Shown: in pieces, positions 531-58,875 of the stretch
How positions within the stretch are numbered: position 1 is the first letter of the stretch
How the letters are laid out: each line of letters begins with the position of its first letter
Source: Hemileia vastatrix
Taxonomy: Eukaryota; Basidiomycota; Pucciniomycetes; Pucciniales; Zaghouaniaceae
Reading direction: 5' to 3'
Length of the DNA: 64,000 nucleotides
Assembly (NCBI GenBank): GCA_030280995.1
Contig: JASXTE010000005.1
Span: 434,001 to 498,000, forward strand
The notes under the pieces: generated by a model
Database searches by the model: none
What the model was told of the DNA's origin: nothing
Seen by the model: the letters and a program-made list of their open reading frames with translations, nothing else
Position numbers and translations under genes: made by a program

Positions 531-1686
531 TATGGTAAGGTAAACTCTTACAGTCGCCTTGCTGTAAGCAGAATCCGGAGGAGATATGTGGATTTAGCTG
601 AAAACCCCGTCCTTCCAATAAAAATAACAAAATGGGTGTTATAAATCACTAAGCTAACCAATCTACTTAGATCTGATTGATAAAATAATGAAACTCTAAA
701 ATAATTAACGCTTATTGAGATTTAATGAAAGTGGCTGTTGATAAAGAAATACTGATAACAACAATTAAGGTGTACCAGTGAAAGATCTGAAAAGATTGAC
801 TTTTATGTTTTTATAATAATTTTAATTTTTATGAGACAGCAATAATCAAGTCCCAGCGATGAAGACCTTTCTAAAGATACCCTGTATGAAGTGTGATTTT
901 AATTGTTGAGTAGTATTTCTAAAATGTTATGTAAAAAAAATAATAATGTTATAAGGGTATTACAAGTTATTTTAATTTGTTGTGTAATAAAAAATGAGAC
1001 TGTGGTGGTTAAAGATTAAGCTGTATGATGTGTCCCCCTTCTCAATTTCGAGTTTGAGAAGCGCTTAAGTATTCCTAGTCACGTGCCTAAGTTTTCCCCT
1101 CCAGAGCTCTTCCAGAGTCAATCCGGAGCCGGAACGGAGTCCGTACGGAGTCCGTACGGAGTCAAAGCGGAGTCCGTACGGAGTCCGTACGGAGTCGAAA
1201 CGGAGTCCGTCCGGACTTCCGGACTCAATTTAGAACCTTAAAACTATAATAAAAAATCTAGAAAAATTACACATAATAGAGCTACTTCCCCTTTACATAC
1301 CAATCTAATTTTCGTAGTCCGCGCAGCTCTAATTACCCCGTGAAAATTCATCAAAGTTAAGTAATTTTTGTAAACGTAAATATTTCTATAAAACTTTAAA
1401 ATTCATTTAAAAATATAAAAAAAATAGTAAAAATTCTGGGAAAATTTCCCAAGGTTCTTGAGTAACTCGACTTGATACTTATAAATTTTCAGACCGTAAA
1501 AATAAGTTTTCTCCGTAAAATAAATTGTATTTGTGTAGGCATTCGCTCGTGACCAATTTCTTCATATTTAAACTCCAATAAATTAAATAAAACCCTTTTA
1601 TATAAAAAAATAATAACACCAATCTTGCATGCCGTGATAACTCCATTTACATATTTAGGTGCCGTACTAAACTTTAGGCTACCACA
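531..1686 (-). repeat. 3' LTR of element A
   Basis: 1156 bp, matching 12919-14074 base for base except at 577. On the sense strand it begins TGTGGTAGCC and ends CCTTACCATA. Near the sense 3' end is a 7-bp hairpin, CTTACAG/CTGTAAG (about 547-568). At 1124-1227 lies a CpG-rich array of CGGAGTCCGTA units, very unlike the AT-rich surroundings. Confidence 0.95.
1124..1227. repeat. CGGAGTCCGTA palindromic tandem array in the A LTR
   Basis: About nine CGGAGTC units alternate with CCGTA, giving repeated CCG-N2-CGG and CGG-N3-CCG arrangements and ending in TCCGGAC palindromes. The same array is in the other LTR at about 13512-13615. Closely spaced CGG triplets in inverted or everted order are the known target class of Zn2Cys6 proteins, which this element itself appears to encode. 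The regulatory role is inference. Confidence 0.7.
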
Positions 1687-1696
1687 TCCTCCCTCC
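1687..1696 (-). promoter_or_regulatory. Polypurine tract of element A
   Basis: The sense-strand sequence GGAGGGAGGA directly abuts the LTR start TGTGG, the expected place for the plus-strand primer. The same ten bases abut the 3' LTR of element B, and AGAGGGAGGA that of G. Conservation continues about ten bases further inward, toward the antisense gene start. Confidence 0.88.
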
Positions 1697-1809
1697 AATC
1701 GAGAATGTCCCCATTCTTAAAACTTTGCATAAGTGGTTGAGCACAATATTCATCTTTAACCTTCAACCACCATCTTCTTTAATCAACTAAAAAATTCATC
1801 TTCATCAAT

Positions 1810-2427
1810 ATGTCTTCCAAAGAACTTGTCGCTCCATGTGAACTCTGCGCTCGATACCAGGTACCTTGTTTAATGTCCAACCCTAATCTTCCTGGCAGAA
1901 CAGCTTGCGACTTATGCCGTGTGAAAAAAGTCAAATGCAACCGGCCAATAGTTCCTTCTAAAACAAACGTATATTTAGGACCAGCAGCTCTCCCTGATCC
2001 CTCAACTTCTAAAAAGCGATCCAAAATTCCTGTCTTCTTAAAACGAATAAGATCAAAAACAGCCTCAAAAGTTCAATCTTCATCAACGGATCCCGGCCTA
2101 ATTTTGCCTTCACAAGATCCTAATCCTATAACGCCAGTACCCCCAACTAACTTTGCTGAGACTATGTTTCCTGGCTCTAAATGTAAGACCCTATTTATCT
2201 TACTAAAAAAAACTTTTAATCAAAATTGACTAAATCTATGACTTAACAACATATTTGAACTTCTAGCTGTCGAAATAACCAACACTGATGATGTTGGTAG
2301 AGTGAAGACGGACTATATCAATCATTACCCAAATTTTCATCGCTATCTTTTTCTTGACTTTACTAATGAGTTGAAACGAAAAATGCTGGCCTATTTTCAA
2401 GAAACTCCAGCTAATAACCATGAATAA
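1810..2427 (+). CDS. Antisense accessory gene 1 of element A, Zn2Cys6-like protein, spliced
   Basis: Two exons, 1810-2182 and 2267-2427, separated by an 84-nt intron (GTAAGA...TTCTAG), give an intact protein of about 177 residues. Residues about 10-43 hold a cysteine cluster C-x2-C-x6-C-x12-C-x2-C-x6-C, ending in CDLCRVKKVKC. The spacing fits a fungal binuclear zinc cluster, but the basic stretch is in the second half rather than the first. The rest is Ser/Pro-rich and then a short acidic/aromatic tail in exon 2. It lies antisense to gag-pol, 113 bp from the PPT. The B copy has its intron in the same phase. A DNA-binding regulator is the natural guess; no target is proven. Confidence 0.82.
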
Positions 2428-3092
2428 CTCATGAAAAGAAGAATTTTAATGCAAAGCTTTGATAATGATGTTGAACAATTTCAAAGAAATTATCTTTGCT
2501 AACAGTATAACTTGATAAAATTTTGTTTTTGCTTGGTCTTCTTAAACTTTCAACATAAATGATGTTTTCTTTCTTCTCTGGCTTGATATAACATAAAATA
2601 AAATAATATAAATCTTGTGATGATTCCACTACTGAGAGCAAGGTTTGAATCCCTTCAGACTCCCATATACCAGTCTTCCTTCTTGTCACAGCATTGAGAG
2701 AGTGGATCTTCCTATGAGCCGAATACTCCTGATTCCAACCTCATAGGGCCCCCCACTGAGCCGAATTCTATGATTCCAATCTCGCCATAAGGTCCTCCAA
2801 GCTTCACACCAAAAAAAAAATGGCCTAACTATGAGGCACTAAAAAATCATTCCCTAAAATCCAACTACCATCCTAACTTCTGATTCCTTCATCACAATTT
2901 TCAAACTTTGCTTTACAGCAAACCCATAAAATACTTTTGCCAGGCTTCCAATAATAATATTAACTTTAGACCATGTTAAAGCGCCACAAATTTCACCTAA
3001 TTAACCATTATGCTTTCATTAGCATCATCACCACCTAAAATTTTAACCTCCTAAAGCCTATCAGCACCCAATTCCAGAAATAATTGAATAAC
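2428..3092. other. Noncoding spacer between accessory genes 1 and 2 of A
   Basis: I see no convincing gene. At 2711-2751 the arms CCTATGAG and CTCATAGG form an 8-bp inverted repeat, followed by a degenerate second copy of the same phrase (GAGCCGAAT..TGATTCCAA) at about 2756-2800. The rest is AT-rich. The 3' end of accessory gene 1 and the promoter of gene 2 must lie here or in the next feature. Confidence 0.5.
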
Positions 3093-3560
3093 CAGTTTAG
3101 AGTCTTAGTGGACAGTGATAAATTAAAAGATTGAATTGAGTTATCCAAACAAGATTGACATTCCAGTTTAAAGTCTTGGTGGACCAAACATATAATCGAT
3201 TGCCAGTTTATGGTCTTGGTGGACCAAAGATCGTTTAGGTGCATAAATGTCTTGATATATTCCTAAGTAAGGCCTAGGCTTGACCAAAGATTGAATAAAT
3301 TTGATAATCCAGTTTAATGTCATAGTGGACCAAACATTTGATCGACAAGTAATCCAGTATAAGGCCATAGTGGTCCAATGAATGTTGAATTATCCTGCAG
3401 ATATTAATTTTCCAGTTTAAAGTCATAGTGGACTAAACAATGAATGAACTACCAGTTTAAAGTCATGGTGGACCAAACATTTAATCGATAAGAAATCCAG
3501 TTTAAGGTCATGGTGGACCCAACACTTGATAATAGTCCAGTTTAAGGTCTTGGTGGACCT
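3093..3560 (-). repeat. Array of nine 22-nt hairpin motifs upstream of accessory gene 2 (A)
   Basis: Motifs start at 3093, 3164, 3204, 3310, 3355, 3413, 3453, 3498 and 3538. On the plus strand each reads CAGTTTA, one base, NNTC, a 6-nt loop, GANN. Stems include AGTC/GACT, GGTC/GACC and AGGTC/GACCT. All nine point the same way. A worn tenth copy may lie near 3265-3285. The array ends 94 bp before the ATG of accessory gene 2, so it sits in its promoter or 5' UTR; element B has an equivalent array in the same place. Confidence 0.85.
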
Positions 3561-3653
3561 AACAACTTCTCTATCCTTGAACCCAGATTTTGCCACCAGC
3601 TTTCTTCATCCTAGTTTCAAGTTTTCTTCTTCAAAAAAATATCTCCTAACAAG

Positions 3654-4667
3654 ATGAAACCTTCTGACTTCATTGCTTCAGCTGATCAATCTTGCAAATA
3701 TTGTGCCTTCACCCATAGGGAATGTATCTTCTCTTTTAACTGGCAAAAGCACACTTATAACAGGGCCTGTTTATCCTGCTATGAGAAGAAAAGAAAATGT
3801 TCTGGCTTGAACTGTGGTTCTTTCCCCATCACTGCTACTAGCTTCGCCGCCTTCTGCAATCCTCCTCCTTCTTCTTCACCTTCTACTCCACCCCCTATTC
3901 CATCAACCTCTAAAGATCCCATACCTTTTTCTCCATCAGCCTATTTAAACCTTTCTCCATCACCTAATCCTCTGGGTCCTTCTCTCCAATCTAGACTTGC
4001 TGCTACTCCCCCAAGAACTATTGCTGCTCCCAGGGCCATGCTTCAACCTTCTAACAATTCTTCTCCTTCTTCCAACATCTTGAAGCACAAAAGGTCCTAT
4101 AATAGCCAGCAGTCTTCATCTTCTCTTGTATCATCCAAAAGGCCCAGAACATCTACTTCAAACACCAAATCCAACACCAGTCCTCCTCATCTATCAAAAA
4201 TAAAAAATCCTTTCCTAAACATAAAAAATCCCACTCCATTACCAAGTAAGCCGTTTATCTATGATCATGATAGTGTTGACACAGGTTAGTTGTCTCTTAT
4301 TATTTTCTTAATCTTCAGGTTTTAATTTGCTAATATTTTAATTTGATAAGCGTCCACCGGTTCTCCAATTTCATATTCTGCTTATGAACTACCAGAACCT
4401 AATCCAAGCTTCCCTAGAGTTCCAATTCACCTAGTGTCTGAAAAGCTTTTTGCTAATTTTAATAACCTTATCGCTTATTTCCAACGATACCCGCCCTCTG
4501 ATAGATCAGAATCTTGGATGAGAGAGCAACTGTTAAGAGACCTTTTCAAAATAGCCAACTGGCTTCAACACTATCGTGACCGTGAAATAAGATTCGAATC
4601 CCAGGAAATCGATCAAGGTCCTTCTAAATTTTCTAATTTCGATTCTTCAAAAGATAACAACCCTTGA
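3654..4667 (+). CDS. Antisense accessory gene 2 of element A, Zn2Cys6-like protein, spliced
   Basis: Exons 3654-4284 and 4351-4667 join across a 66-nt intron (CAG|GTTAGT ... GATAAG, with GCTAAT as a likely branch site) into an intact protein of about 315 residues. Residues about 15-49 carry C-x2-C-x6-C-x14-C-x2-C-x6-C, ending in NRACLSCYEKKRKC. A long Ser/Pro/Thr-rich, probably disordered middle follows, then an exon-2 domain of about 100 residues with predicted helices (..LLRDLFKIANWLQHY..). B and G carry a homologue at the same position, with an intron in the same phase. It is distinct from gene 1, having a longer middle loop in the cluster. A regulator of transcription is inferred from the cluster only. 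Confidence 0.82.
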
Positions 4668-4792
4668 TGGTGTTCTTCCTGGTATGTAGCTTTCTTGAAT
4701 AATGTTTGAAAAATAAAATATAAACATCTAAACTACCTAAAACTAAAATACCTTTTATTATTTTTTTCTTATTTTTATTTTTATTTTTATTT

Positions 4793-4825
<33 letters not shown>

Positions 4826-5120
4826 TTTTTTATTTTATTTTTTATTATTATTATTTTTTTATTTATTTTTTTTTTAATTATTTTTTTTAGATTATTATTT
4901 TTTTTTTTTTTTAATTTTTATTTTATTTTTTTATTTTAATTTTAATTTTTTTAATTTTTTTTTTTTTTTTTTTTTAATTTTTTTTTTATTTTATTTTTTT
5001 TAAATTTAAAATAAAAGATTTTAGAAAAGATAGTTTTGAAATAAAAGTTAAAATTTAATTTTAATTTTAAAGAAAGATAAAAAAGGTAATAAAAAAAATA
5101 TCAAAATAAAATTTTTAAAA
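4668..5120. other. T-rich low-complexity spacer of element A
   Basis: About 4750-5010 is an almost pure T/A tract (TTTTTATTTT runs), followed by A-rich sequence. No gene is visible. It separates the 3' ends of the convergent pol and accessory gene 2 units and could act in 3' end formation on either strand. Confidence 0.6.
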
Positions 5121-5196
5121 GATGCCCCCCGGCCATTTGATGAGCCGTACCCTCGACATCATACCCACATCCAAGTGCAACTTGATGTGGTTACAC
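5121..5196 (-). repeat. Conserved hairpin block, type 2 (A copy)
   Basis: On the sense strand CCACATC-AAG-TTGCA-CTT-G-GATGTGG forms a hairpin, followed by a conserved tail GGCTCATCAA..TGGCCGG. Two copies are found in B (25414-25490 and 25607-25683). One B copy changes AAG/CTT to AGG/CCT, so pairing is kept. Confidence 0.7.
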
Positions 5197-5261
5197 AATT
5201 TTAAGAAATTGAAAAGAAAAGAAAATAAATGAAAGTTTTTAGAAGATAATTTTTATAATGA

Positions 5262-5320
5262 TGATCACTGGGTGGGCTCCCTCCAATTTATAAAAATGAT
5301 TAGAGACCACCAGTGAGCAT
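5262..5320 (-). repeat. Conserved hairpin block, type 4 (A copy)
   Basis: The sense strand reads GCTCACTGGTGGTCTC ... GGAGGGAGCCCACCCAGTGATC. B has the same block at 25184-25242, with strong identity in the arms and divergence in the loop. The arms pair over about ten or more bases. Function unknown. Confidence 0.65.
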
Positions 5321-5450
5321 CGCCTTTACAATAATTCATAATATATATTAAAGAAAAGAAATCACAATCTAACATAAAAAAAATCAAAAACAAAATAAAA
5401 TAAAAAAAATCTTGAATCCGGCGTTGAGAGCGGTGTCTCTTGATTCGTTC

Positions 5451-5620
5451 CAGTTTATAGTCTTAGTGGACTTCCTAAAATTAAAAGACAAAGCCAGGAT
5501 TCAACTAGAAACAGGGAAAATTTTGGAAACGAACATTATGGGGTAATTGTGTATAGAGCAGCCAGCCCATCAATTACCCCCACACTTGCCAATATTAAAT
5601 TAAGAAGGTTCCCCTGTGAA
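5451..5620 (-). repeat. 180-bp conserved noncoding unit (A copy)
   Basis: A unit shared with B, which has three copies (24700-24876, 24961-25139, 27749-27929). In sense order it has a GGTNCCC..GGG start, GGCAAGTGTGGG, a hairpin with arms GGGGTAATTG/CAATTACCCC around GATGGGCTGGCTGCTC, a TTGAATCCTGG phrase, and one 22-nt hairpin motif (5451-5472). No coding potential is seen. Confidence 0.75.
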
Positions 5621-5803
5621 CACTTCTTCCAATAAATTTTTAAAATTTTCCAACACTATCTTCACCCATATTTTTAGAAATTTTAAGTTTTTTTTTGAAA
5701 ATTTCAAAGAAGGTCTTCTTGAATTTCGTTAAGTTTCATCATAGTTTCGTCGACCATATACAGTGTAACAATAGTAAAGTATTTTTTTATAAAAATAAGA
5801 AGA

Positions 5804-6025
5804 TAGTTTATCCTCGTTGCGGAGGTATCCATAAAATTTCATAGATATCATTAAAATTGTAGTTTATCCTCATTCCGGAGTTCGTCCATATAATTTCATA
5901 AATGTCATAATTTATCCTCATTGCGGAGGAATAAATTTAATAAAAGTCATTAAAATTGTAGTTTATCCTCATTTCGGAGTTGATAAAATTTAAGAAATTT
6001 CATAGTTTATCCTCATTGCGGAGGA
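5804..6025 (-). repeat. Five 22-nt hairpin motifs at the pol 3' end (A)
   Basis: Copies start at 5804, 5860, 5908, 5959 and 6003, with TAGTTTAT followed by CCTC...GAGG or TCCTC...GAGGA stems. The copy at 6003-6025 encodes the last residues of Pol (..RNEDKL); the other four are in the 3' UTR. The stems differ from the AGTC/GACT type upstream of accessory gene 2, yet the rest of the motif is the same. Confidence 0.85.
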
Positions 6026-7658
6026 AGACTTCGGCACTCCTGGTGCCTCTAGGATAGAACCGTTTCACTTGATCGGCAGCTACCCTCTTCTTCAATACAA
6101 CTCCATCCAACTCTTCTAGCACATATGAACCGCCGGAAACTTGCTCCTTGATTTTATACGGTCCATTCCACCTATCTGCAAACATTTTTCCCCACTGACT
6201 TTCCAAACTCCTATTATACACCAGGACCATATCACCTGGGTTCAAAGGTTTCCTTAATCGATGTGCCAACCGCTCATCCCAATATCTAACTGATTGATTT
6301 CGGATCTTCATCATCCGCGAATATGCCTTTTCTAAATATTCTTCTTTCTTTTCTAGCTGCATCATTCTCGCACACAATAATTCTTCAGTAGTTTTGACCG
6401 TGTCCCAGTCAACTCCAAGATATGATTCAGCTTCTAAATCAACCGGTAAAACTGCTTTCTGTCCAAAAACAAGTTCATAAGGTGAAAATCCGGTCGTCCT
6501 TTTGGCAGTGATTCAATCAGCAAATAAAACTAAAGGTAAATAGTGCCTCCACTTTTCAGCACTTGTCCCACACATTTTAACTAAAGCATCCTTAATAACT
6601 TGATGCCCTCTTTCAACCATGCCTTCAGCTTCGGGATAATATGGGGTTGCTACCCTAACCTTTGATCCAACTTTCAATACGGCCTCTTTAAACTCTGTCC
6701 CAAATTCAGGACCTCCATCTACCGTTACCAACTTCATCACCCCATACCTATATACCCAATTATTCAAAAAAAATTCTGCCACATTTTTGGCAGTTAAATT
6801 AATAAGAGGCGCTGCCTCTACCCAACCAGATAAATCATCTCTGGCCACAATTAAATATTTATACCGTCCCTCTTTTATATGAACGGCATCTAAACTAACT
6901 CTCCCAAAGAGCGTATATTCACCGGTCGCGCGTCCAGGTTCTTTTGGCCTTAAATAACTTCGTCTTTGACATTCTTCGCATGACTGAACCCACTGTTTAA
7001 CAGCCATCTTCATGCCAGGCCACCAAAATCGATCAGAAATTCTTCTAAATGTTTCTCCAACGCCTCTATGCCCGAGATCTTCATGCAGTGATTTCAAAAC
7101 TAATTCTTGCCCCTTCTGTTGAGTTATAACTACTTGAGGATTTGGATACCTCCTCCTCATTAAACGTCGACCAGATAGGTAAAACGTAGATGACTTCCTC
7201 TTGATAGCCACCCATTCATCGTCTTCACAATCTTCTGGCCTCTCTAAAGTCAACAAATATTTGACTAACAAAAAATAAAAACCAGTCTGACCCCAGACTT
7301 CATCTTGAAAATCGATTAATATAACATCAATAGGGACTTCTCTATCACCAATATCACCTGCACATGAATGAGCCAATAATCGTTGACCCCTAAATAAATC
7401 TTTAATCGAGCTATGTCGTTGTTTTTCTTCTGAACCTTTGGATCCTTCGAAAACCGTATTTGAAAATACCTCTTTTTCTTTATCCACCTTTTTATTTAAA
7501 TTCTCTAATTCTCCAACATATACACCATTCCTTAATTTACTACTATCCCACACTACCAATCCATTTTCCTCTACATACACCACATCTTCTTCTACCTCCT
7601 CTCTGCCGAATTTATCTACACCTTTTCCAACACCTTTATTAACATAAAAACTATTTTC

Positions 7659-7738
7659 CAGTTTATCCTCTTGGTGGAGGTCATCATCATCATAATCTAA
7701 ACACAATAGTCCTGCCAGTTTAACCTCATGGGGGAGGT
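7659..7738 (-). repeat. Two hairpin motifs in the RNase H-integrase spacer (A)
   Basis: Copies at 7659-7680 (CCTC/GAGG) and 7716-7738 (ACCTC/GAGGT) lie in frame within pol and encode ..HQEDKL and ..PHEVKL. B and G have two copies in the same spacer. Confidence 0.85.
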
Positions 7739-9704
7739 ATGGAAAGTCTTCAGCTCCTTTAGTGCTGGCTTTGATAATAGGTATATCTTCATCGAACTCT
7801 TCTGAGTCTGAATCTTCTTCAGTGGGTGGTCTCCTTGATAAACCATCTGGCATAGTAAAAGTTTTGCCAGGCTTATGAACTAAATCAAATGAAAAATGTT
7901 GAATAAAAGCTACCCATCTCGTCATGGGTGCGTTCGGTAAACTTGGGGAATTAATCATCTGGATTAACGATTTCGCATCCACTTGCAACTCAAAATGTTG
8001 CCCCCACAAAATATGCTGAAGTTTCTTCAGTATTTTCGCCACACCACATAATTCCAATTTTGGTTGAGAATATCTTGATTCGACCTCAGTAAATACTACA
8101 GATTCATACCTAACTGGCCTGATGTAACCAGCTTTATCCATCTGAGACAAAACCGCCCCAGCTGCAACCTGACTTGAATCGACTGCTAAATAAATTCTGC
8201 CAGCTTCTTTTCCATAATCCAACTTGTGCAGGACTAAATCCTTCCCTACAACCTCCTTCAACTTCACAAACGCCTTCTCACACTCTTCATCCCACTCCCA
8301 GTCTGCATCCTTTCTTGTTAACCGTCTCAATGGAGCTGCCAATGAAGAAAAGTCCTTGATAAACATTCTAACATATACGCAAACGCCTAAAAACCCTCTA
8401 ACTTCGGTCGTATTCTTGGGTCTTGGCCAGGACTGAATTTTGTTAACCTTCTTCTTGGACATAATCCTACCCTCTCTACATACCACATGGCCTAATATTT
8501 CTAAGGCTGGCACACAACATGAAAATTTTGAACCTGAAATAGTTAAACCAGCCTCTTCAATTCGAAACAAGATTCTTTCTAAAGTAATTGCAAACTCCCA
8601 AATGAATTTGCGTATCCCGGGATTCTCTTCCAACACCTGGTTATCATAGTCGGTTGTTGGTCCCTTAATTCCTCCATCATCTATAAAGATTCCAGCATAT
8701 TGTGGAATTTCATCTTGAAGGATCCAAGCCATCTGAGCTTGATAAACTGCAACCGAATTTGTTGCTCCTTGAGGTAATCTTGTTAACTGTAAACGTCCAA
8801 GTGGTGTATCGAATGTAGTGAGAGGCCTTGAGTCCGGATGTAACTCTCTCTCATCATATCCACCCATAATATCTCCCAAACCATAACACACTCTCCCTGC
8901 AAACGCTTCAACAAACTCCTCACCACTAGGTGGTATCCCAGCATCCTTTATTGTAACCCTATTTAATTCCCTAAGATCATGAACAACTCTAAGCTTGCCA
9001 TTCGGTTTCTTGATACAAAATACCGGACTAGAATAACTTGACGTTGATTGCTCATACAGTCCAGTGCGTATCCGTTCTCTGACAACTTCGATATAAGCTT
9101 CTTTCAATGCAGCCGGAATAGGAATCGGTTTCTGCTGCCACGGTTCATGACATACCACAGGAATCTTGTAAGGCTCCCCATAGGAATGCTTCAACACACC
9201 CCTCTCCTCTTCTACAAAAGCAATGGCCTTCTCTCGCTTGACCATCACATCCAACAACAACTTCTTCTCTTCTCCAGACAACCAACCATCAGGTCCAAAA
9301 TTAACAACACCCAGTCTCTCAAAAGTGATTCTTGACGTCTCAGAAAATTCAGGCGGATTCTTTACCAAGGGACTTTCATAAGGATCTCTTGATAACCTTG
9401 GTCTTCTCAAAGGTGGATTTAATTCAGCAGGTAGCGGTTCATTAATAGGTCGAACTTTATTTGCTACTTTCTTATATTTGGCTGCGTCCACATCTAAATA
9501 AACTTGAGGTAAAACATCGCCATTAAAACTTTCATCAAATGAATCATCTTCATCGCCAGAATCAGAATAAGAAAAATTAGAAAAATATTTTATTTCATTT
9601 TTAAATTTTACCCTTTTCTCCTTTCCCTCGTCTAATTTATAAACAGATTTTCCAACACCTTTGCTTCCCTTATCCAACAGTAAATCACCTGTAAAGAAAG
9701 TCGG

Positions 9705-9877
9705 CAGTTTAACCTCTTGCTGGAGGACCGGAATTGAATTTTCACAAAAATTATTTTTTTGTGTTTTAATTATACTAAGATTTTTAATCGGGTTTTGATG
9801 ATATTTTCGCAGTTTACCCTCTTGCTGGAGGTCCGTAATAGAAGGAGATACTTGCAGTTTAACCTCTTGCTGGAGGT
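9705..9877 (-). repeat. Three hairpin motifs in the Pol N-terminal spacer (A)
   Basis: Copies at 9705, 9810 and 9855 share CCTC TTGCTG GAGG and encode LQQEVKL or LQQEGKL. They are separated by 105 and 45 bp. B has two copies at the equivalent place. Confidence 0.85.
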
Positions 9878-10132
9878 CATAAAACATACCCTTCCAATTT
9901 TTATCCAACCTAATTTGGCCCATTTTGCCTTTTTCACCGTTTTTAAATTTAATAGAAAAACCAGGTAAATCCAATAAACATATAGAAAAGTCCAAAACGT
10001 ATTTGCACTCCAAAGTAATATTAACAGAAAATAATTGAGAATCCACTTGAATTATCTCCAAGTGAGCTGACCTATTGCAATCCGGGATCTCATCCTGAGG
10101 AGAGATTACAACATTAGAGCGATCAGCCCCTG

Positions 10133-12742
10133 CTACCCCAAAAAATGAGGGCATTCATCCCTTTCCGACAAACATAATTCACCAGAAGCCGTCCGTTTTA
10201 TATGCCGCTTCTTGGTGCAAACACAACACTGGCACAGAGTAGTAATCCCTGGCCGTGTTTCCCAACCTTCATCTCCAGGAGGCGCTAACCGCATATGTAA
10301 CCTCCGCATATCTTCACCAGTGATCTCCAAACTAATCCCCATGCCAGCTTGATACCCTATCCTGGCCTCAAAATCCATCAAAAAAGGACCACCAAGAACA
10401 GTTTTGACTGCTCCTCTGGCCACATAAAAGTGAACCTTACCAACAGATCCACCAATGCCTAACCTGACATGCTCAGCTGTACCCATCAGCTCTGTTGCAT
10501 GCCCTCCAATACCTCTGAGGTTTCCCCCAGTTCCACTTTTAATTGGCAAGCCTATACTCGTTGCTTGCTCCAATGAAATTAAATTAATTTGAGACCCTGA
10601 ATCGACCAAGGCCTTTACTTCTTTACCATTAAGAGTTACCACCAGGTAACCCAGGGGAGCGGAAAAATGTGTATCTACATCTTCCCCAAACTTTTCTGCA
10701 TTTTCACAAATATATTCCACCTCTCCAGTGGAAACCCGACGCCTCGTCAAATGCTTCTTTTGCTTTTCAGCAAGCGCCGGACTAATTGTAAATAACTCCC
10801 CCAAAGATAAGGGAATCTGCAGTTGATTCACCCTATTCAAAACTGCGTCCATCGCATTAGCTTGACCAGAAACTACTGGCCGCTCATACTGGACCTTTGA
10901 TTTAACAACCTTGGCCCTGGGTACCTCTTGAGGTCCAACCGAGCCATCTTCACCCCCCATTATAACATCTTCACTTTCTATAACCCTAACTCCGTCACCA
11001 GCTTCTTGCACTAATCCTGATCCATCGCTAGTCCTTCTTACACCCTCCATTGGGATGGGACCGCTAAAACTTGGTCTGGGTAGAGACGCCAACGGTACGT
11101 CCTCCTCAGAATCCGAATCATCCTCTGGCATAGGCTCACCATTTAAATCAAACTTGCCATAACTAGGGGGCCCCATATCAGCAATCCCCTTCTGCATTTT
11201 ATATAATTCGTCCTTAGAGTAAGGGTTCAATTTGTTGGCGGCAGTTTGAGCACTAGAATTCTTGTCCTTAGAGTAAGGGTTCACTTTGTTATTGGCCTTG
11301 CCAGGATTAGCCCTCAATTGGCTCTGAATGCTACTTTTCGCCTTAGTAGCAGCTGCTCTTCTAGCAGCATTAACATCATATTCGCCAGCCATACAGCTAC
11401 CCTCCACCTGGGCAACCGTCGCCAGCTCTAAACCACCAAAAGAAGTAGAAAATGTGGCTTTACTGACCTCTTTCTCTTTACCTTTGTCAGCTTTTCCACC
11501 ATTACCGTTACCATTTTTGCCACCCTTGGCATTAACATCTTCATCCGTCACCTCTTCAAATCTGGCTCTCCTTTCAGCCGTTAAACTTCTTCTGACCAAA
11601 TCAGAAGGAGACTGTCCATCACTGGGCTTGATGAACGAACCATCAGGAAATTTATAAACTTTACCATCAAATAAAACTCGCCCAGCATCCATATCCTTAT
11701 CAAGAGCAAAACAAACTGTTGCTCTATGACCCCTCCTATTACAATAGGAGCACACCTTTGGCTCATCGTAGCCACCTCTATATCCATTACCACCATTCCC
11801 ACCATTTCTCCCATTGCCTGGGAAGCGGTTACCGTTATTATTGCCATTATAATTTCGACGTTCATAACCTCTGGACTGATAAGAAGTCGACGTCGACGAA
11901 GAAGCGATTGGGGCCTTGTTGGCCTTTTGAGTCTCTTGGACAAATATCTTTAGCTGTTTCGTTAAATCGGCCAAGTGATCGACCATCTTGTTGTCTACAT
12001 TGCCCTCAACTTTTGCAGCAGGAACACCCATTTGTGCCTTCTTGGCCTCCTGGGCTTTGACCATAATATCGTTGTTCTCGGCCAAAACTTCGCTAACCTT
12101 ACTGACATATTGAGTGCAAGACTCTTGATACTTGTCCAACGCTAATAACTTTAGATGGGCTTGGATGTTCTCTTTAATAACCTCCAGAGCCGGTAACTTC
12201 TGCTCACCGTTTGGCAGTTCCTTCATTAAATTCTTTCTTGAGAGATCCTTCAAGACGTCCATTCGAATATCCCTACTGCATGCTGACCAAAACAAATCTT
12301 TTGCTTGATTTTCATGCACTAATTCATCCACCAGTATGAGATATTCCACCACTTCATCAAACTGAACACAGAGCTTTTTGAAGTCAGCCATAGAAGAAAC
12401 ACCACCTTTTGCTTGCCAGTCTCCAACAATTTTATTGAGGTCCATCATAGTAAACCTAACACCCCATCTATCAACCATAGCTTTAGAAAGCTTAACCCAA
12501 TCCTTGTCCTTGAATGCCTGCATAGCAATAACCTCTTTTTCCACCTCCCTATCGGCAATAAAAAATCTAACTTGCTTCACCATATCCACATGAGAAGCAC
12601 CATCAACAGCAGCAGCAGCTTCATACCTGCTAATGAACCATTTAACCTCCTCCCCATCAAACTTTGGGCCATCCCAAGAAACAATTCTAACTGAGGGAGT
12701 AAGAGGGTTAGAAGATCCAGAAGCAACAGCAGAAGAAGACAT
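10133..12742 (-). CDS. gag: Gag-protease polyprotein of element A, intact
   Basis: 869 residues with no break. It opens with a capsid-like helical region (about 20-250, ..VKWFISRYEAAAAVDG..), then a Gly/Asn-rich stretch and a zinc knuckle CSYCNRRGHRATVC (about 329-342). A Lys/Ser-rich linker follows, then a retropepsin-like domain with the active-site box ALVDSGSQINLIS (about residue 713) and its flap and GGPFLMDF end, and a Cys-rich tail (CQCCVC). The ATG at 12742 lies about 160 nt from the PBS. Protease is in the Gag frame rather than the Pol frame, so both are made at the Gag level. B Gag is alignable throughout. Confidence 0.94.
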   Translation of the reverse strand: MSSSAVASGSSNPLTPSVRIVSWDGPKFDGEEVKWFISRYEAAAAVDGASHVDMVKQVRFFIADREVEKEVIAMQAFKDKDWVKLSKAMVDRWGVRFTMMDLNKIVGDWQAKGGVSSMADFKKLCVQFDEVVEYLILVDELVHENQAKDLFWSACSRDIRMDVLKDLSRKNLMKELPNGEQKLPALEVIKENIQAHLKLLALDKYQESCTQYVSKVSEVLAENNDIMVKAQEAKKAQMGVPAAKVEGNVDNKMVDHLADLTKQLKIFVQETQKANKAPIASSSTSTSYQSRGYERRNYNGNNNGNRFPGNGRNGGNGGNGYRGGYDEPKVCSYCNRRGHRATVCFALDKDMDAGRVLFDGKVYKFPDGSFIKPSDGQSPSDLVRRSLTAERRARFEEVTDEDVNAKGGKNGNGNGGKADKGKEKEVSKATFSTSFGGLELATVAQVEGSCMAGEYDVNAARRAAATKAKSSIQSQLRANPGKANNKVNPYSKDKNSSAQTAANKLNPYSKDELYKMQKGIADMGPPSYGKFDLNGEPMPEDDSDSEEDVPLASLPRPSFSGPIPMEGVRRTSDGSGLVQEAGDGVRVIESEDVIMGGEDGSVGPQEVPRAKVVKSKVQYERPVVSGQANAMDAVLNRVNQLQIPLSLGELFTISPALAEKQKKHLTRRRVSTGEVEYICENAEKFGEDVDTHFSAPLGYLVVTLNGKEVKALVDSGSQINLISLEQATSIGLPIKSGTGGNLRGIGGHATELMGTAEHVRLGIGGSVGKVHFYVARGAVKTVLGGPFLMDFEARIGYQAGMGISLEITGEDMRRLHMRLAPPGDEGWETRPGITTLCQCCVCTKKRHIKRTASGELCLSERDECPHFLG
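10139..10145 (-). promoter_or_regulatory. Putative -1 frameshift site T TTT TTG (A gag-pro/pol)
   Basis: In the gag frame the codons read CAT TTT TTG GGG TAG, so the heptamer T TTT TTG sits four nucleotides before the gag stop (TAG at 10133-10135). Pol is open in the -1 frame across the overlap. B has T TTT TTA at the homologous place. This is the X XXY YYZ class known from retroviruses. Confidence 0.8.
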
Positions 12743-12899
12743 CCCAATAAGTAAAGAAAAGCGTTAACAATCGATAAAATAACAAGCCTCTTGCAGGCCA
12801 ATAACAAAAATCCAATTAGAGTTCCAGAAAATAAGCCTCTTGCAGGCTAAGAACGTTCTTGATCCAAGTAAGTCTTTAAAGAAAGCTAGAGAAATCGAA
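12743..12899 (-). other. 5' UTR of element A with a duplicated hairpin
   Basis: The phrase AAGCCTCTTGCAGGC occurs twice, at about 12782-12796 and 12834-12848, and folds as GCCT/AGGC around a short loop. It resembles the 22-nt motif without its TAAACTG tail. As it lies between PBS and gag, a packaging or dimerisation role is possible but unproven. Confidence 0.5.
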
Positions 12900-12916
12900 C
12901 CCCACGTTGGGCGCCA
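12900..12916 (-). promoter_or_regulatory. Primer binding site of A, tRNA-Lys(CUU) type
   Basis: TGGCGCCCAACGTGGGG, just inside the 5' LTR, is complementary to the 3' end of tRNA-Lys(CUU) including CCA, the same primer used by Mason-Pfizer-type retroviruses. Element B carries the same 17 bases. Confidence 0.88.
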
Positions 12917-12918
12917 AC

Positions 12919-14074
12919 TATGGTAAGGTAAACTCTTACAGTCGCCTTGCTGTAAGCAGAATCCAGAGGAGATATGTGGATTTAGCTGAAAACCCCGTCC
13001 TTCCAATAAAAATAACAAAATGGGTGTTATAAATCACTAAGCTAACCAATCTACTTAGATCTGATTGATAAAATAATGAAACTCTAAAATAATTAACGCT
13101 TATTGAGATTTAATGAAAGTGGCTGTTGATAAAGAAATACTGATAACAACAATTAAGGTGTACCAGTGAAAGATCTGAAAAGATTGACTTTTATGTTTTT
13201 ATAATAATTTTAATTTTTATGAGACAGCAATAATCAAGTCCCAGCGATGAAGACCTTTCTAAAGATACCCTGTATGAAGTGTGATTTTAATTGTTGAGTA
13301 GTATTTCTAAAATGTTATGTAAAAAAAATAATAATGTTATAAGGGTATTACAAGTTATTTTAATTTGTTGTGTAATAAAAAATGAGACTGTGGTGGTTAA
13401 AGATTAAGCTGTATGATGTGTCCCCCTTCTCAATTTCGAGTTTGAGAAGCGCTTAAGTATTCCTAGTCACGTGCCTAAGTTTTCCCCTCCAGAGCTCTTC
13501 CAGAGTCAATCCGGAGCCGGAACGGAGTCCGTACGGAGTCCGTACGGAGTCAAAGCGGAGTCCGTACGGAGTCCGTACGGAGTCGAAACGGAGTCCGTCC
13601 GGACTTCCGGACTCAATTTAGAACCTTAAAACTATAATAAAAAATCTAGAAAAATTACACATAATAGAGCTACTTCCCCTTTACATACCAATCTAATTTT
13701 CGTAGTCCGCGCAGCTCTAATTACCCCGTGAAAATTCATCAAAGTTAAGTAATTTTTGTAAACGTAAATATTTCTATAAAACTTTAAAATTCATTTAAAA
13801 ATATAAAAAAAATAGTAAAAATTCTGGGAAAATTTCCCAAGGTTCTTGAGTAACTCGACTTGATACTTATAAATTTTCAGACCGTAAAAATAAGTTTTCT
13901 CCGTAAAATAAATTGTATTTGTGTAGGCATTCGCTCGTGACCAATTTCTTCATATTTAAACTCCAATAAATTAAATAAAACCCTTTTATATAAAAAAATA
14001 ATAACACCAATCTTGCATGCCGTGATAACTCCATTTACATATTTAGGTGCCGTACTAAACTTTAGGCTACCACA
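12919..14074 (-). repeat. 5' LTR of element A
   Basis: The partner of 531-1686, with the same length of 1156 bp. It includes the CGGAGTCCGTA array at about 13512-13615. ACGG directly follows at 14075-14078. Confidence 0.95.
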
Positions 14075-16843: not shown

Positions 16844-17913
16844 TGTGTTCTTCCAACATTAGCAGGGGCCTTTGTTGTGTGATTTGGCGCTGTTTGTGCA
16901 TGTCTTAATTGACATCTGTTAAGGAATTTGGTATTTTTCTGGTTCTATCCCGTGGATATTGGGTCTGCGGGTATGTGGGTACTATCATTGGATAGCCCCG
17001 GTTTTTCTCTATATTTTATATCTTGAAGACATTTTTCATATTCTGAGTTTTAAGGGGTCATTTCCTCATTTTTCATTAATAAAAGATTGCTGTTTAATTT
17101 TGTTTTTTGTGTTTTATGGGCTAACCTTAAGTCTTAGGGTTAATTGCTTAGTACCATTTGATAGAGCTAATTTTTCTCTATATTTCATGTCTCAATGTTG
17201 TTATAGTGAAATTCCGTGTTTTAAAGGTTTTAGTAGTTGTAGCTAATTTTTCTAAGTAGATTAGTGGTTTTTATTGGTTTTCTGGCTTCAGGGAGGCCGG
17301 GCCGCTTCAGGCGGCTCGCCCGCCTCTGTTTTAGGAGGTTGGGGAGCGCTTCAGGAGGGTTTTTTATGCAATTTGGCAGGTACAGGCGCCAGATTGGTGG
17401 GCGCGCATGGGCTCTTAGTGGTCTGTGTGTACATAGTGAATAAGACAGTTTGGGGCAACCTTAATCATCATACAACCATCTGGAGGTGATATCATTGTTC
17501 CTCACTCAGTTTTCACTGTTTTCTGGCCACAATTGGCTGTGTTTGTTGCAAGTAAGTTCTTCATTTAACTTAACTTTGGCAACTGTTTTCTCTGTTATAG
17601 TCTTGCAAGCTATAGCAAGTATTATTGCTGTCTCTGGTGTGGATTTGCAGCCTACATCAAGTATCTTTGCTGTCTCTGGTGTGGACTTTGTTCTACATTT
17701 CAGTTCTTTGGTCTGGTAGTCTATCTGGGGACTACTTTCTTGGCTCATCAAGCAGTCAAGTGTGTTAAAAAGGAGCTTTAGCAAAACAGGAACCAACTTA
17801 CTTTAGCAAGTAAATCTCACTCTATTTTTCTAAAGGGACAGGGGATTTTCGCTCTGGTTTTTCTCCAACTCCCTTGGTCAAGGCCTATAGCTAGTACTAT
17901 AGGATTGTCTACA
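16844..17913 (+). repeat. 5' LTR of element B
   Basis: 1070 bp, starting TGTGTTCTTCC and ending GATTGTCTACA. A GC-rich CCGGGCCGCTTCAGGCGG cluster is at about 17297-17325. The phrase TTGCTGTCTCTGGTGTGGA occurs twice at about 17624-17687. Confidence 0.93.
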
Positions 17914-17984: not shown

Positions 17985-20387
17985 TTGGTGTTTTGGACTG
18001 GAGGAATGGCTTCTGGTTCTGCTATTCCTGTGGTGACTGTCAGTGGGGGGGATGGTCCTCCTTCTGTGATGGTTAGGGAGTGTGTGAGGATTAAAACTTG
18101 GGATGGTACCAAGTTTAATGAGGAGGATGTCAAGTGGTTTCTAGAGAAGTATGAAACTGCTGCTGGAGTGGATGGTGCTTCCTACCTGGACATGGTGAAG
18201 CAGATTATCTTCTTCATTGGTGATAGGTCAGTGGAGAAGGAGATTGTGGCCATGTCTGGCTACAAGAAGAGGGATTGGAAATTGTTGTGTAGGGAAATGG
18301 TGGATAGATGGGGTGTCAGGTTCACTATGGTGGATATGAACAAGGTTTTCAGTGAATGGCAATCTTATGGTGGTGTTGGTAACTTACATAGTTACAGGAA
18401 GTTTCTGCTACAGTTTGATCCTGTGGTGGAATATTTGGTGGAAGTGGAGGAGCTGGCACATGAAAATGCTGCCAAGGATGTTTTTTGGTCTGCCCTGGCT
18501 AGAGATGTCAGGATGGATGTGTTGAAGGAGTTGTCAAGAAAGGAATTGATGAAGACTCTTTCTAATGGGGACCAGAAGTTGCCTGCCTTGGATAAGGTGA
18601 AGGAGGCTGTTGAGGCCCATTTAAAGTTATTGGCTGTAGACACCTATCAGGAGGGGTGTGCCAAGTATGTCAGCAAAGTCAGTGAGGCTTTGGCTGAAGA
18701 GGAAGTTAGGGAGAAGAAGGAGGAGAAAAATTTGGTGCAGGTTCCCAAACAGGAGAGGGACCCAATGGTGGAGAAGTTGGCTGATCTGACAAAACAGCTG
18801 CACATTTTTGTCCAGGAGGCCAAGAAGGTTAATAAGGCACCTTCTCAGCCAAGAGATTTTGAAAGGAGGGCTGGTAGGAGTGATCCTTGGGTTTGCTCTT
18901 ATTGCAGTAGGAGGGGGCACAGGACCAATGATTGTTGGGCACTGAACAGAGATGTGTCTGAAGGAAAAGTGGAGTTTGATGGCAGGGTTTTTAAGTTCCC
19001 TGACGGTTCTTTTGTGAAGCCCAGTGAGGGGCAGGCTCCTGTTGATTTGGTCAGGAGAAGGGGTGGTCTCAATCAAAGGAGGCCAAGGTTTGAGGAGATT
19101 CCTGATCAGGGGAAGTCTTCTGTTAAGGTAGATGAGGACGTCAAGGGAAAGGGGAAGGAGGTCAATAAGGTCTCTTTTTCTACTTCCTTTGGTGGTTTGG
19201 AGTTGTATTCTTGTAGTGGACAGTCAAGTGGTGAATGCTTGGCTGGTGTTTATGATGTGGAAGCAGGGAAGGTGGGTAGGCCTAAGAGCAGTTCTCAGGC
19301 CCAACCAAAGTCAAATGCTTCAAAGGGTGATCCTAAGCTGAGTGCAGCTAGGAAAAGGTACAGCAAAGAGGAGCTGTACAAGATGCAGAAGGGTATGGCT
19401 GACATGGCCCCCCCTAGTTTTGGTGCATTGGACCTGAATGGTGAGCCAATGCCAATGGATGTGGATTCTGACTCTGAGGAGGATGTCCCTTTGGCTTCAT
19501 TGCCAAAGCCTTCTGGAGTCAGAGGTTCTGGTGAGGGATCTGGTTTGGTTCCTGTTAATGGTAAATCTGTTGGTGGTGCTGGTCCTCAAGAAGCTTCTAG
19601 AACCAAGGCGGTGAAGCAAAGAGCTCACTTTGAGAGGCCAGTAGTGTCTGGTCAAGTTAATGTTATGGACTCTTTCCTGGAAAGGATGAACCAGGGTCAG
19701 GTTTCCCTATCTTATGGGGAATTGTATGCTATAAGTCCAGGGTTGGCTGATAGGCAGAAAAAGTTGTTGACCAGGAGAAGGGTTTCTTCTGGTGAGGTGA
19801 AATACATTTGTGATTCTACTGAAAAGTTTGGTGAGGGGTTGGAAACTCATTTTTCTGCTCCTCTGGGATATGTCAATGTCACTCTGAATGGCAGGGAGGC
19901 AAGGGCATTGGTGGATTCAGGTTCTCAGATAAACCTGATTTCATTGTTTGAGGCAACTCATATGGGCCTCCCCATCAAAACTGGTATCGGTGGGAATTTG
20001 AGAGGGATCGGTGGCCATCTCACTGAATTGGTTGGAACTTCAGAGTTTGTGAAGTTGGATGTTGGAGGAGCCTCAGGGAAGGTTCATTTTTACATTGCTA
20101 AAGGTAATGTAAAAGCAGTTTTGGGTGGGCCATTCTTGATGGATTTTCAGGCAAGAATAGGTTATCAATTTGATTTGGGAATCAGTTTGGAGTTGACTGG
20201 TGAAGACGAAAGGAGGCTTGACATGAGGTTATCATCCCCTGGAGAGGATGGTCGGAAGACTAGGCCTGGTTTATCTTCAATGTGCCAGTGCATGGACTGC
20301 TGCAGGAGAAGGAAGGAAGTGGGTGCTGCCTCTGGTTTTTTGGAGTGCGGTTCAGACTCTATTGAGAGTCTGTCTTTTTTAGAGTAA
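17985..20387 (+). CDS. gag: Gag-protease polyprotein of element B, intact
   Basis: 800 residues from ATG 17985; an in-frame ATG at 18006 (MASGSAIP..) aligns better with A Gag and may be the real start. Order: capsid-like region (..VKWFLEKYETAAGVDG..), zinc knuckle CSYCSRRGHRTNDC (about residues 303-316), charged linker, retropepsin box ALVDSGSQINLIS, GGPFLMDF, and a Cys-rich tail CQCMDCCRRR. It is shorter than A Gag, mainly in the Gly/Asn-rich and linker parts. It remains fully open although pol downstream is broken. It ends in ..SLSFLE at a slippery site. Confidence 0.93.
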   Translation: MVFWTGGMASGSAIPVVTVSGGDGPPSVMVRECVRIKTWDGTKFNEEDVKWFLEKYETAAGVDGASYLDMVKQIIFFIGDRSVEKEIVAMSGYKKRDWKLLCREMVDRWGVRFTMVDMNKVFSEWQSYGGVGNLHSYRKFLLQFDPVVEYLVEVEELAHENAAKDVFWSALARDVRMDVLKELSRKELMKTLSNGDQKLPALDKVKEAVEAHLKLLAVDTYQEGCAKYVSKVSEALAEEEVREKKEEKNLVQVPKQERDPMVEKLADLTKQLHIFVQEAKKVNKAPSQPRDFERRAGRSDPWVCSYCSRRGHRTNDCWALNRDVSEGKVEFDGRVFKFPDGSFVKPSEGQAPVDLVRRRGGLNQRRPRFEEIPDQGKSSVKVDEDVKGKGKEVNKVSFSTSFGGLELYSCSGQSSGECLAGVYDVEAGKVGRPKSSSQAQPKSNASKGDPKLSAARKRYSKEELYKMQKGMADMAPPSFGALDLNGEPMPMDVDSDSEEDVPLASLPKPSGVRGSGEGSGLVPVNGKSVGGAGPQEASRTKAVKQRAHFERPVVSGQVNVMDSFLERMNQGQVSLSYGELYAISPGLADRQKKLLTRRRVSSGEVKYICDSTEKFGEGLETHFSAPLGYVNVTLNGREARALVDSGSQINLISLFEATHMGLPIKTGIGGNLRGIGGHLTELVGTSEFVKLDVGGASGKVHFYIAKGNVKAVLGGPFLMDFQARIGYQFDLGISLELTGEDERRLDMRLSSPGEDGRKTRPGLSSMCQCMDCCRRRKEVGAASGFLECGSDSIESLSFLE
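20375..20381 (+). promoter_or_regulatory. Putative -1 frameshift site T TTT TTA (B gag-pro/pol)
   Basis: The gag codons TCT TTT TTA GAG TAA contain T TTT TTA, the same heptamer used by HIV-1. The -1 frame continues as FFRV..ADHPSSTTSPRDEEIP, alignable with the A Pol N terminus (FFGVAGADRSN..SPQDEIP). The site is thus conserved in place and type while the neighbouring sequence has diverged. Confidence 0.82.
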
Positions 20388-23013: not shown

Positions 23014-23071
23014 CCTCCCCCATGAGGCTAAACTGGACGATTGTTCTGACCTCCCCCAAGAGGCTAAACTG
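23014..23071 (+). repeat. Two hairpin motifs in the RNase H-integrase spacer (B)
   Basis: Copies at 23014-23035 and 23050-23071, with CCTC/GAGG stems, loop CCCATG-like, then CTAAACTGG. They encode LPHEAKL and LPQEAKL, as in A. Confidence 0.85.
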
Positions 23072-56369: not shown

Positions 56370-56610
56370 TCCAGAAGAACTGACACTTTCTCTTTTTTAT
56401 TTTTTCAGTTCTTTCTTTATTTTTATTTTTTTTTATTTTCATTTCTCCTTTTTTTTTAATTTTTGTAAATTTTTTTCTCTTTTTTCTTTTTCTTTTTTTC
56501 TTTTTATTTCATTTTTTCTCATTTTCTCATTTTTTTTCATTTTCATTTCATCCCTTTTTGCATTTTTCATTTTTATTTTTCATTTCTTTCTCTTTTTTTT
56601 GATCATTTTT
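56370..56610. repeat. T-rich low-complexity tract
   Basis: An almost pure T/C tract with ATTTTTCATTT phrases between F and Harbinger copy 2. No gene. Confidence 0.7.
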
Positions 56611-58865: not shown

Positions 58866-58875
58866 TCCTCCCTCT
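58866..58875 (-). promoter_or_regulatory. Polypurine tract of element G
   Basis: AGAGGGAGGA on the sense strand abuts TGTGG. On the plus strand, TCCTCCCTCTACTCGCGACTGTCCCC continues the similarity to A (1687-1712). Confidence 0.82.

What the first reader, a model, noticed from the sequence alone, without database searches (positions are those of the whole stretch)
531..14074. A Ty3 retrotransposon family with two conserved antisense, spliced zinc-cluster genes
A, B and G each carry, between pol and the 3' LTR and on the opposite strand, two genes in fixed order. Gene 1 (1810-2427; 28657-28098; 58978-59957) and gene 2 (3654-4667; 27379-25933; 60538-61343) each begin with six cysteines in Zn2Cys6-like spacing and each have a short intron; in gene 2 the intron phase is the same in all three copies, and in gene 1 it is the same in A and B. 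Five of six are intact after splicing, although pol has stops in A, B and G. Seen directly: cysteines, splice sites, frames, strand and order. Known: Zn2Cys6 proteins are fungal transcription factors, and some retroviruses carry antisense genes. Inferred: these are element-encoded regulators kept by selection. I know of no described Ty3 lineage with this pair.
Basis: partly seen in the sequence, partly recalled or inferred. Interest (0 to 1): 0.95.

Follow-up and report, generated by a model that had tools for sequence, protein, structure and literature searches.

The report
Rust retrotransposon with antisense zinc-cluster genes
A huge retrotransposon lineage in what looks like a rust fungus genome carries, on its back strand, two conserved genes for DNA-binding-type zinc proteins, and its body is sprinkled with a matching kind of paired DNA signal, which suggests the parasite brings its own gene regulator and its own target sites.

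Summary
A, B and G are Ty3 elements with two antisense, intron-bearing genes between pol and the 3' LTR, each opening with six cysteines. The genes belong to the lineage: of 40 neighbouring 3' LTR junctions on another contig, 33 carry gene 1, and the other 7 share one deletion. Substitutions follow codons (third-position excess p=0.0005 in seven of seven exon tests; pN/pS 0.25-0.47 between subfamilies, about 0.94 expected without selection; pooled McDonald-Kreitman odds ratio 0.58, p=0.001). Correction: against relatives, all three window copies of gene 1 end early and one gene 2 is broken. The clusters match zinc-cluster profiles with their two halves in swapped order. New here: a dyad, AGTTTA-NN-GTC-N6-GAC or -CTC-N6-GAG, lies in one orientation along A, B and G: 33 sites in the window, about 138,000 in the genome, against 794 with mixed halves. 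I read this as an element-encoded regulator with candidate target sites, working like plant Retand/Grande antisense proteins and Arabidopsis VANC. Codon-level selection is shown; antisense RNA, DNA binding and the protein-site link are inferred. Other fungi could not be tested.

The parts
531..1686 (-). 3' LTR of element A (1156 bp)
   Evidence: pair with 12919-14074, 1 mismatch
1124..1215 (.). palindromic ACGGAGTCCGT array in A LTR (CGG/CCG triplets)
   Evidence: 7.5 copies of 11 bp; CGG-N0-12-CCG 8 against 0.7 in shuffles, 0 of 200
1810..2427 (+). A antisense gene 1 (exons 1810-2182, 2267-2427); early stop in this copy
   Evidence: Pfam Zn_clus 23.2 bits, cut-off 21
3094..3558 (+). array of dyad motif, GTC-N6-GAC type, 8 sites upstream of gene 2
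3654..4667 (+). A antisense gene 2 (exons 3654-4284, 4351-4667; 315 aa)
   Evidence: 27 of 30 A copies, the window copy among them, splice to 315 aa
5452..5471 (+). single dyad site, GTC type
5805..6023 (+). dyad sites, CTC-N6-GAG type (4 exact), at the end of pol
6513..10154 (-). A pol ORF (RT, RNase H, integrase; interrupted at its end); 5 CTC-type dyad sites inside (7660, 7717, 9706, 9811, 9856)
10133..12742 (-). A gag-protease ORF
12919..14074 (-). 5' LTR of element A
16844..17913 (+). 5' LTR of element B
   Evidence: 95.8% to 28706-29798
17985..20387 (+). B gag-protease ORF
20936..24352 (+). B pol ORF; CTC-type dyad sites on the minus strand at 20972, 23015, 23051 (a further one at 20906, just upstream)
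25933..27379 (-). B antisense gene 2 (last intron 26262-26329); frame broken within the cluster in this copy; middle exon structure uncertain
27532..27701 (-). array of 5 GTC-type dyad sites between B gene 1 and gene 2
28098..28657 (-). B antisense gene 1 (intron 28277-28326); early stop in this copy
28706..29798 (+). 3' LTR of element B
58860..58874 (+). 3' LTR/polypurine junction of element G (15-mer ACCACATCCTCCCTC; exact in A too, and in B as GACCACATCCTCCCTC)
58978..59957 (+). G antisense gene 1 (two introns); early stop and lost first donor in this copy; TATA-like box 79 bp upstream of the ATG
60538..61343 (+). G antisense gene 2 (intron 60992-61044; 250 aa)
63468..63520 (+). two GTC-type dyad sites (one imperfect) in the G pol linker, where A and B have CTC-type sites

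Best explanation
The two antisense genes are element-encoded, zinc-cluster-type DNA-binding proteins that regulate the element itself. Steps: (1) Shown: they lie antisense between pol and the 3' LTR, beside the polypurine tract, in A, B and G. (2) Shown: codon-level purifying selection between subfamilies. (3) Inferred: they are transcribed from promoters at or inside the 3' LTR edge (gene 1) and upstream of gene 2; because the replicating RNA is the other strand, their introns cannot be spliced out of it, which would explain why introns persist. (4) Inferred: the proteins enter the nucleus and bind, as dimers, sites in the element. The candidates are the one-orientation dyad AGTTTA-NN-(G/C)TC-N6-GA(C/G) along pol and the pol-3' region, and palindrome arrays in the LTR. 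(5) Inferred: binding turns the element's transcription up or protects it from silencing, as VANC does for VANDAL, or balances it, as HBZ does for HTLV-1 (recalled).
For: Lineage-wide presence: 15-mer junction 7456 times in the genome against 1 reversed; 40 of 40 junctions assignable, 33 with gene 1; RT tag on the opposite strand 5.6-6.9 kb away for 30 of 43 exact gene 1 tags and 4.7-5.0 kb for 11 of 11 exact gene 2 tags on C2; 8 of these 11 have a gene 1 tag at 1860-1880 bp. Selection; pooled MK and neutral yardstick. Zinc cluster: six cysteines and Met1 are the only invariant residues in 8 proteins of gene 1 and gene 2 from A, B and G groups; A gene 1 is over the Pfam cut-off; 9 of 11 PDB matches to the cluster profile are Zn2Cys6 proteins, best E 0.014; 22 of 24 Foldseek matches are zinc-cluster entries, all weak (that CBF3 counts is recalled). 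Dyad: spacer 6 in 43 sites, at most 2 for each of nine other spacers; 32 of 33 unique sites symmetric; genome 79,258 and 58,839 symmetric, 461 and 333 mixed; none in the LTRs, gag, both genes and 28 kb of other DNA in the window.
Confidence: 0.62

Rival explanations
1. The proteins act on the element's RNA or particles (export, packaging, chaperone), and the dyad is an RNA signal in the genomic transcript rather than a DNA site.
For: The dyad keeps one orientation along the element and lies inside pol; inverted repeats can pair in RNA; Cer1 CERV is such an accessory protein (title and start of abstract of PMC10309623 in the listing; retroviral Rev recalled).
Against: Zinc-cluster rather than zinc-knuckle spacing; the constant arms are three bases with a six-base loop, a weak hairpin; the same motif sits in non-coding arrays upstream of gene 2.
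Confidence: 0.15
2. Captured host zinc-cluster genes that ride along without a role in the element.
For: Zn2Cys6 proteins are typical of fungi (recalled); one A-like subfamily lacks gene 1 and still spread.
Against: Same place and order in A, B and G, gene 2 intron phase shared, and codon constraint between subfamilies; a passenger would decay.
Confidence: 0.08
3. The selected thing is the antisense transcript (for example to make small RNA or to block sense transcription); the proteins are incidental.
For: Antisense RNAs without coding capacity are known in other retroelements (passages of PMC7264820).
Against: Third-position excess in seven of seven exon tests and in neither of the two introns tested.
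Confidence: 0.05
4. The proteins serve the host or act on host genes (domesticated or antagonist) rather than on the element.
For: Thousands of copies could reach host promoters (inference).
Against: The genes travel with the element in near-identical copies; whether host-only copies exist was not looked for.
Confidence: 0.1

Closest known systems
[quoted passage not shown] also Grande gene23, RIRE2 (PMC11963269 abstract and passages; PMC7264820 passages)
   Same: Ty3 elements, long pol-3'LTR region with antisense genes in most young clusters, tandem repeats in about half, predicted DNA binding or nuclear protein, proposed regulator
   Different: Plants; TRP28 domain (no match here); the words zinc and intron do not occur in the main text
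Boty-like elements of Botrytis cinerea with antisense gene brtn (cited in passages of PMC7264820, PMC8365987, PMC4227169; the 2011 paper itself not read)
   Same: Fungal LTR element with an antisense gene between pol and the 3' LTR
   Different: One gene named; CHROMO-type gag-pol; sequence of brtn not available here, so relation untested
VANC proteins of Arabidopsis VANDAL elements (PMC5735166, abstract and sections 8, 9)
   Same: Element-encoded protein with target motifs arrayed in one orientation at high density, often in tandem repeats, with two motif types
   Different: DNA transposon (recalled); VANC motifs lie mainly in non-coding DNA, here also in pol; binding proved there, not here
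HBZ of HTLV-1 (recalled; nuclear role named in passages of PMC11963269, antisense promoter in the 3' LTR in PMC7264820)
   Same: Antisense gene for a nuclear regulator, started at the 3' LTR; spliced (recalled)
   Different: bZIP (recalled), one gene, animal retrovirus
Gal4-type Zn2Cys6 transcription factors (Pfam PF00172)
   Same: C-x2-C-x6-C, spacer, C-x2-C-x6-C; basic residues; fungal
   Different: Basic half comes second; short proteins; no further domain found

Membership tests
Ty3/Gypsy LTR retrotransposon | two LTRs flanking gag-PR-RT-RNaseH-INT in that order | tested here: met
   A and B; G incomplete
Ty3/Gypsy LTR retrotransposon | polypurine tract at the 3' LTR | tested here: met
   junction shared by A, B, G; 15-mer at 7456 places
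Zn2Cys6 zinc cluster (Pfam PF00172) | six cysteines in Zn2Cys6 spacing | tested here: met
   six cysteines invariant in 8 of 8 proteins
Zn2Cys6 zinc cluster (Pfam PF00172) | score over Pfam gathering cut-off | tested here: inconclusive
   1 of 5 proteins over 21 bits (A gene 1, 23.2), four at 9.4-18.2; two at 12.5 and 12.1 and A gene 2 with none at E<=1
Zn2Cys6 zinc cluster (Pfam PF00172) | basic half first, as in the profile and in Gal4 | tested here: not met
   second half matches the profile's start in 4 of 5 proteins, first half its end in the fifth; halves swapped in 5 of 5 alignments shown (Lac9, Leu3 twice, Gal4, AlcR). One weak in-order match, 9slr, E 3.1, not seen
Zn2Cys6 zinc cluster (Pfam PF00172) | zinc binding and dimeric DNA binding | not testable with these tools
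   -
[quoted passage not shown]
Retand-type antisense TRP28 gene | TRP28 domain (PF04195) | tested here: not met
   no match to it in the proteins scanned
Boty/brtn | homology to brtn | not tested
   no brtn sequence held
VANC-like anti-silencing system | dense one-orientation target motif in the element, rare elsewhere | tested here: inconclusive
   dense and one-orientation; rarity elsewhere only from reversed controls and 28 kb of the window
VANC-like anti-silencing system | protein binds the motif and lifts silencing | not testable with these tools
   -

The most novel reading that the evidence does not exclude
A fungal Ty3 lineage carries a two-protein, antisense, spliced zinc-cluster system with a half-swapped cluster, whose own targets are the about 138,000 dyads AGTTTA-NN-(G/C)TC-N6-GA(C/G) written in one orientation through its coding and non-coding DNA; the two dyad types (one in pol, one in the accessory region) answer to the two proteins, and this self-addressed anti-silencing or activating system helped the lineage fill a 748 Mb genome.
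Probability: 0.3. Interest if true: 0.93.

Novelty: new variant of a known kind. Interest (0 to 1): 0.8.

Why it matters
How retrotransposons outrun silencing in giant rust genomes is an open question. An element-encoded DNA-binding pair with its own target sites would be the fungal, retrotransposon counterpart of VANC and HBZ, probably arisen independently, and is directly testable with stranded RNA data and a binding assay. It could also account for part of the zinc-cluster genes that annotation finds in such genomes.

Tried and rejected
Homologues outside this genome: phmmer with A gene 2 and hmmsearch with a gene 1 alignment against 5.8 billion proteins found nothing at E<=10, although the same database holds close relatives of pol (638 at E<=1e-10 among 7978 candidates scored; 120 listed, up to 77% identical, named ones from Puccinia, Austropuccinia, Phenoliferia). 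So the genes change fast, or are unpredicted because spliced; absence elsewhere is not shown. Scans of viral and prokaryote genome contigs with a pol alignment found none. PDB sequence searches with whole gene 1 or gene 1/2 alignments gave weak zinc-cluster and chance matches, with A gene 2 exon 1 none.

Common origin of gene 1 and gene 2: the C-termini look alike (YFQ-x2-P) but profile comparison gave probabilities of 7-23% only; left open.

Chance ORFs or antisense shadow coding: rejected by codon-position tests. Canonical Gal4 membership: not filed, order of halves not met. Chromo domain: none in the A and B ORFs scanned, but these stop before the C-terminal end of pol.
Full report
Setting. 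The window is part of a 747.6 Mb assembly in 791 contigs; 18 contigs have hits beyond 24 Mb. RT-RNaseH of element A is 62-74% identical to proteins named from Puccinia striiformis, P. coronata and Austropuccinia and 50-62% to those named from Phenoliferia; the best match, 77%, is unnamed.

The elements. A lies on the minus strand: LTRs 531-1686 and 12919-14074 with one mismatch in 1156, gag-protease 12742-10133 and RT-RNaseH-integrase 10154-6513, the latter interrupted at its end. B lies on the plus strand with LTRs 95.8% alike. G runs beyond the window end and its pol is in pieces; its 5' LTR was not found in the next 7 kb. A and B pol are 74% identical and carry a distinctive FIDDGG in RT.

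The antisense genes. Gene 1 starts 54 bp (B), 129 bp (A) or 118 bp (G) inside the 3' LTR junction; gene 2 starts about 1.3-1.8 kb further on. Splice sites look regular: gene 2 in G has GTAAGT and a CTGAC branch-like site; gene 1 in G and its sister group G' has GTAAGT donors in 6 of 7 copies and a TTACTAA branch-like site in 7 of 7 (branch-site labels recalled). The same 7 copies have TATAAAT (3) or CATAAAT (4) about 40 bp inside the junction. In the window, gene 1 ends early in all three copies, G gene 1 has lost a donor, and B gene 2 is broken in the cluster. Relatives are better. Of 30 A copies picked by exon 1 of gene 1 (one is the window copy), 26 fit my splice pattern: 23 give 202 aa, the window copy 177, two end at once. 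Of 30 A copies picked by exon 1 of gene 2 (one is the window copy), 27 splice to 315 aa and 26 have gene 1 exon 2 upstream; only exon 2 is an unbiased test there. In B, exon 1 of gene 1 is free of stops and net indels in 11 of 15 copies and exon 2 in 11 of 15.

How common. The 15-mer at the polypurine/LTR junction occurs 7456 times against 1 for the reversed pattern. I took the first 40 places on contig C2, in order of position, not at random over the genome. All 40 could be assigned by best match: A with gene 1, 8; A-like with one shared deletion of gene 1, 7; B 14; B' 5 (L077 weakly); G 2; G' 4. At least one gene-1-less copy keeps gene 2 (exact tag at C2:859798). With up to 3 mismatches, tags of A RT, gene 1 and gene 2 occur 3334, 1580 and 811 times; the lower numbers for the genes may reflect faster change, the gene-1-less subfamily, or loss. 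Exact tags on C2 show the antisense layout: 30 of 43 gene 1 tags (of 47 listed on C2; 4 lie near the end of the capped RT list) and 11 of 11 gene 2 tags have an RT tag on the opposite strand at the right distance; 2 of 43 gene 1 tags have one in a wrong place within 9 kb.

Selection. Divergence by codon position, B against B', gene 1: 0.205/0.135/0.406 in exon 1 and 0.318/0.195/0.430 in exon 2; G against G', gene 1: 0.180/0.108/0.348 and 0.182/0.101/0.396; gene 2, B against B': 0.186/0.098/0.405, 0.230/0.258/0.424, 0.173/0.147/0.478. The third-position excess has permutation p=0.0005, the least possible, in all seven; the two introns tested show none (p 0.99 and 0.83). Pooled pN/pS between subfamilies, in the same order: 0.34, 0.42, 0.30, 0.25, 0.27, 0.47, 0.26; within subfamilies 0.29-0.88. 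The neutral yardstick, from spacer substitutions among eight B copies applied to one exon, is 0.94. MK tables: one of seven significant alone (gene 2 last exon, p=0.039), one opposite in sign (gene 1 exon 2, B against B'), pooled odds ratio 0.58, p=0.001; gene 1 alone 0.67, p=0.10; gene 2 alone 0.50, p=0.004. Left out: L077 from B' (degenerate), and L086 from the gene 2 middle and last exon (foreign sequence). Gene 2 tests rest on four B and one or two B' copies. Independence of sites and copies is assumed.

The proteins. Over 8 proteins of gene 1 and gene 2 from the A, B/B' and G/G' groups only Met1 and six cysteines are invariant: C-x2-C-x6/7-C, a gap of 12-15, C-x2-C-x6-C. A gene 1 passes the Pfam Zn_clus cut-off; in 4 of 5 proteins the best match joins the second half to the start of the profile, in the fifth the first half to its end. 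A profile of 20 clusters finds 11 PDB sequences at E<=10, 9 of them Zn2Cys6 proteins, best E 0.014; in all 5 alignments shown (Lac9, Leu3 twice, Gal4, AlcR) the halves pair in swapped order. So the basic half is second. A weak in-order match to 9slr (E 3.1) did not recur. AlphaFold gives two short helices, at residues 11-16 and 34-39, at low confidence; 22 of 24 Foldseek matches are zinc-cluster entries (Put3, Ppr1, Gal4, Leu3, Hap1, Pho7, Lac9, AlcR, CBF3), none with E below 0.39.

The dyad. The spacer between gene 1 and gene 2 of A holds a tandem array of CCAGTTTAAAGTCTTGGTGGAC-like units; the window has 15 matches with up to 3 mismatches in A and B, none in 100 shuffles. Reduced to its constant parts it reads AGTTTA-NN-(G/C)TC-N6-GA(C/G). 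The window has 33 sites: 18 in A, 12 in B, 3 in G, 0 in 28 kb of other DNA, 0 in LTRs, gag or the genes, all on the antisense strand. In A and B the CTC...GAG type lies in and around pol, the GTC...GAC type nearer the antisense genes. In window plus L116, 32 of 33 unique sites are symmetric. In the genome: 79,258 GTC...GAC, 58,839 CTC...GAG, 461 and 333 mixed; reversed controls 60, 36, 162, 82. These are copies, not events, and decay of symmetric sites alone would give some mixed ones, so I rest little on the ratio. One comparison counts as an event: in the RNase H-integrase linker, A and B have two CTC-type sites each (peptides LPHEVKL, LHQEDKL, LPHEAKL, LPQEAKL) where G has GTC-type ones (HNDNKL, RDDNKL), one of the two imperfect: the dyad was kept or rebuilt while the peptide changed. 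This points to a constraint on nucleic acid, not on protein. Zn2Cys6 dimers bind inverted triplets at fixed spacing (recalled; Ppr1 uses a 6-bp spacer), which makes these proteins natural candidates. LTRs have other palindromes: ACGGAGTCCGT in A, CGG...CCG in B (4 against 0.2), AGCGC/GCGCT in G (11 against 0.6, overlapping matches counted; 960 bp taken as LTR); TCCGTACGGA is present in 23 and CGGAGTCCG in 27 of 30 A LTRs, the window copy included.

Reading. The parts fit an autonomous regulatory module. The nearest described systems are plant Retand/Grande antisense genes and VANC; Boty brtn is a fungal precedent for the layout. The case differs in the zinc cluster, the pair, the introns and the dyad. 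What is shown: genes, layout, spread, codon constraint, dyad. What is inferred: transcription, zinc and DNA binding, the link between protein and dyad, and the direction of regulation.

Noticed in passing
window:26262-26329 and L089: The last gene 2 intron differs little between B copies and the B' copy L070 (7-16% by position) while third codon positions of the neighbouring exons differ by 42-48%; the G intron is likewise well kept (by eye). Cause unknown: a signal on either strand, or gene conversion.
   Followed up: no
L069, L081, L085, L087, L107, L109, L113: An A-like subfamily with one shared deletion removing gene 1, 83-87% like A next to it; at least L081 keeps the gene 2 tag.
   Followed up: partly
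window:57135-57800 and 42803-43102: Two stretches 86% alike; the first reads GFVDGTTIPLSQKPAHDGNHYF, like a PIF/Harbinger transposase (label recalled, no domain search).
   Followed up: no
window:30084-36126: A separate Ty3 element with a Chromo domain; it has no dyad sites.
   Followed up: partly
L116 (66561-70740 if window numbering is run on): Beyond the window end lies more of this lineage: a G-like junction stretch at 66561 and an A-like dyad array at 67970-70737.
   Followed up: partly
window:4753-5001 and 56386-56613: Long T-rich tracts on the plus strand, the first between A gene 2 and pol.
   Followed up: no
window:8670: RT active site reads FIDDGG instead of the usual Y-x-DD, shared by A and B.
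   Followed up: no
PDB 9slr (Superfamily Pmag-02): Weak match (E 3.1) to the gene 1/2 profile with the cysteine halves in the same order; not opened.
   Followed up: no
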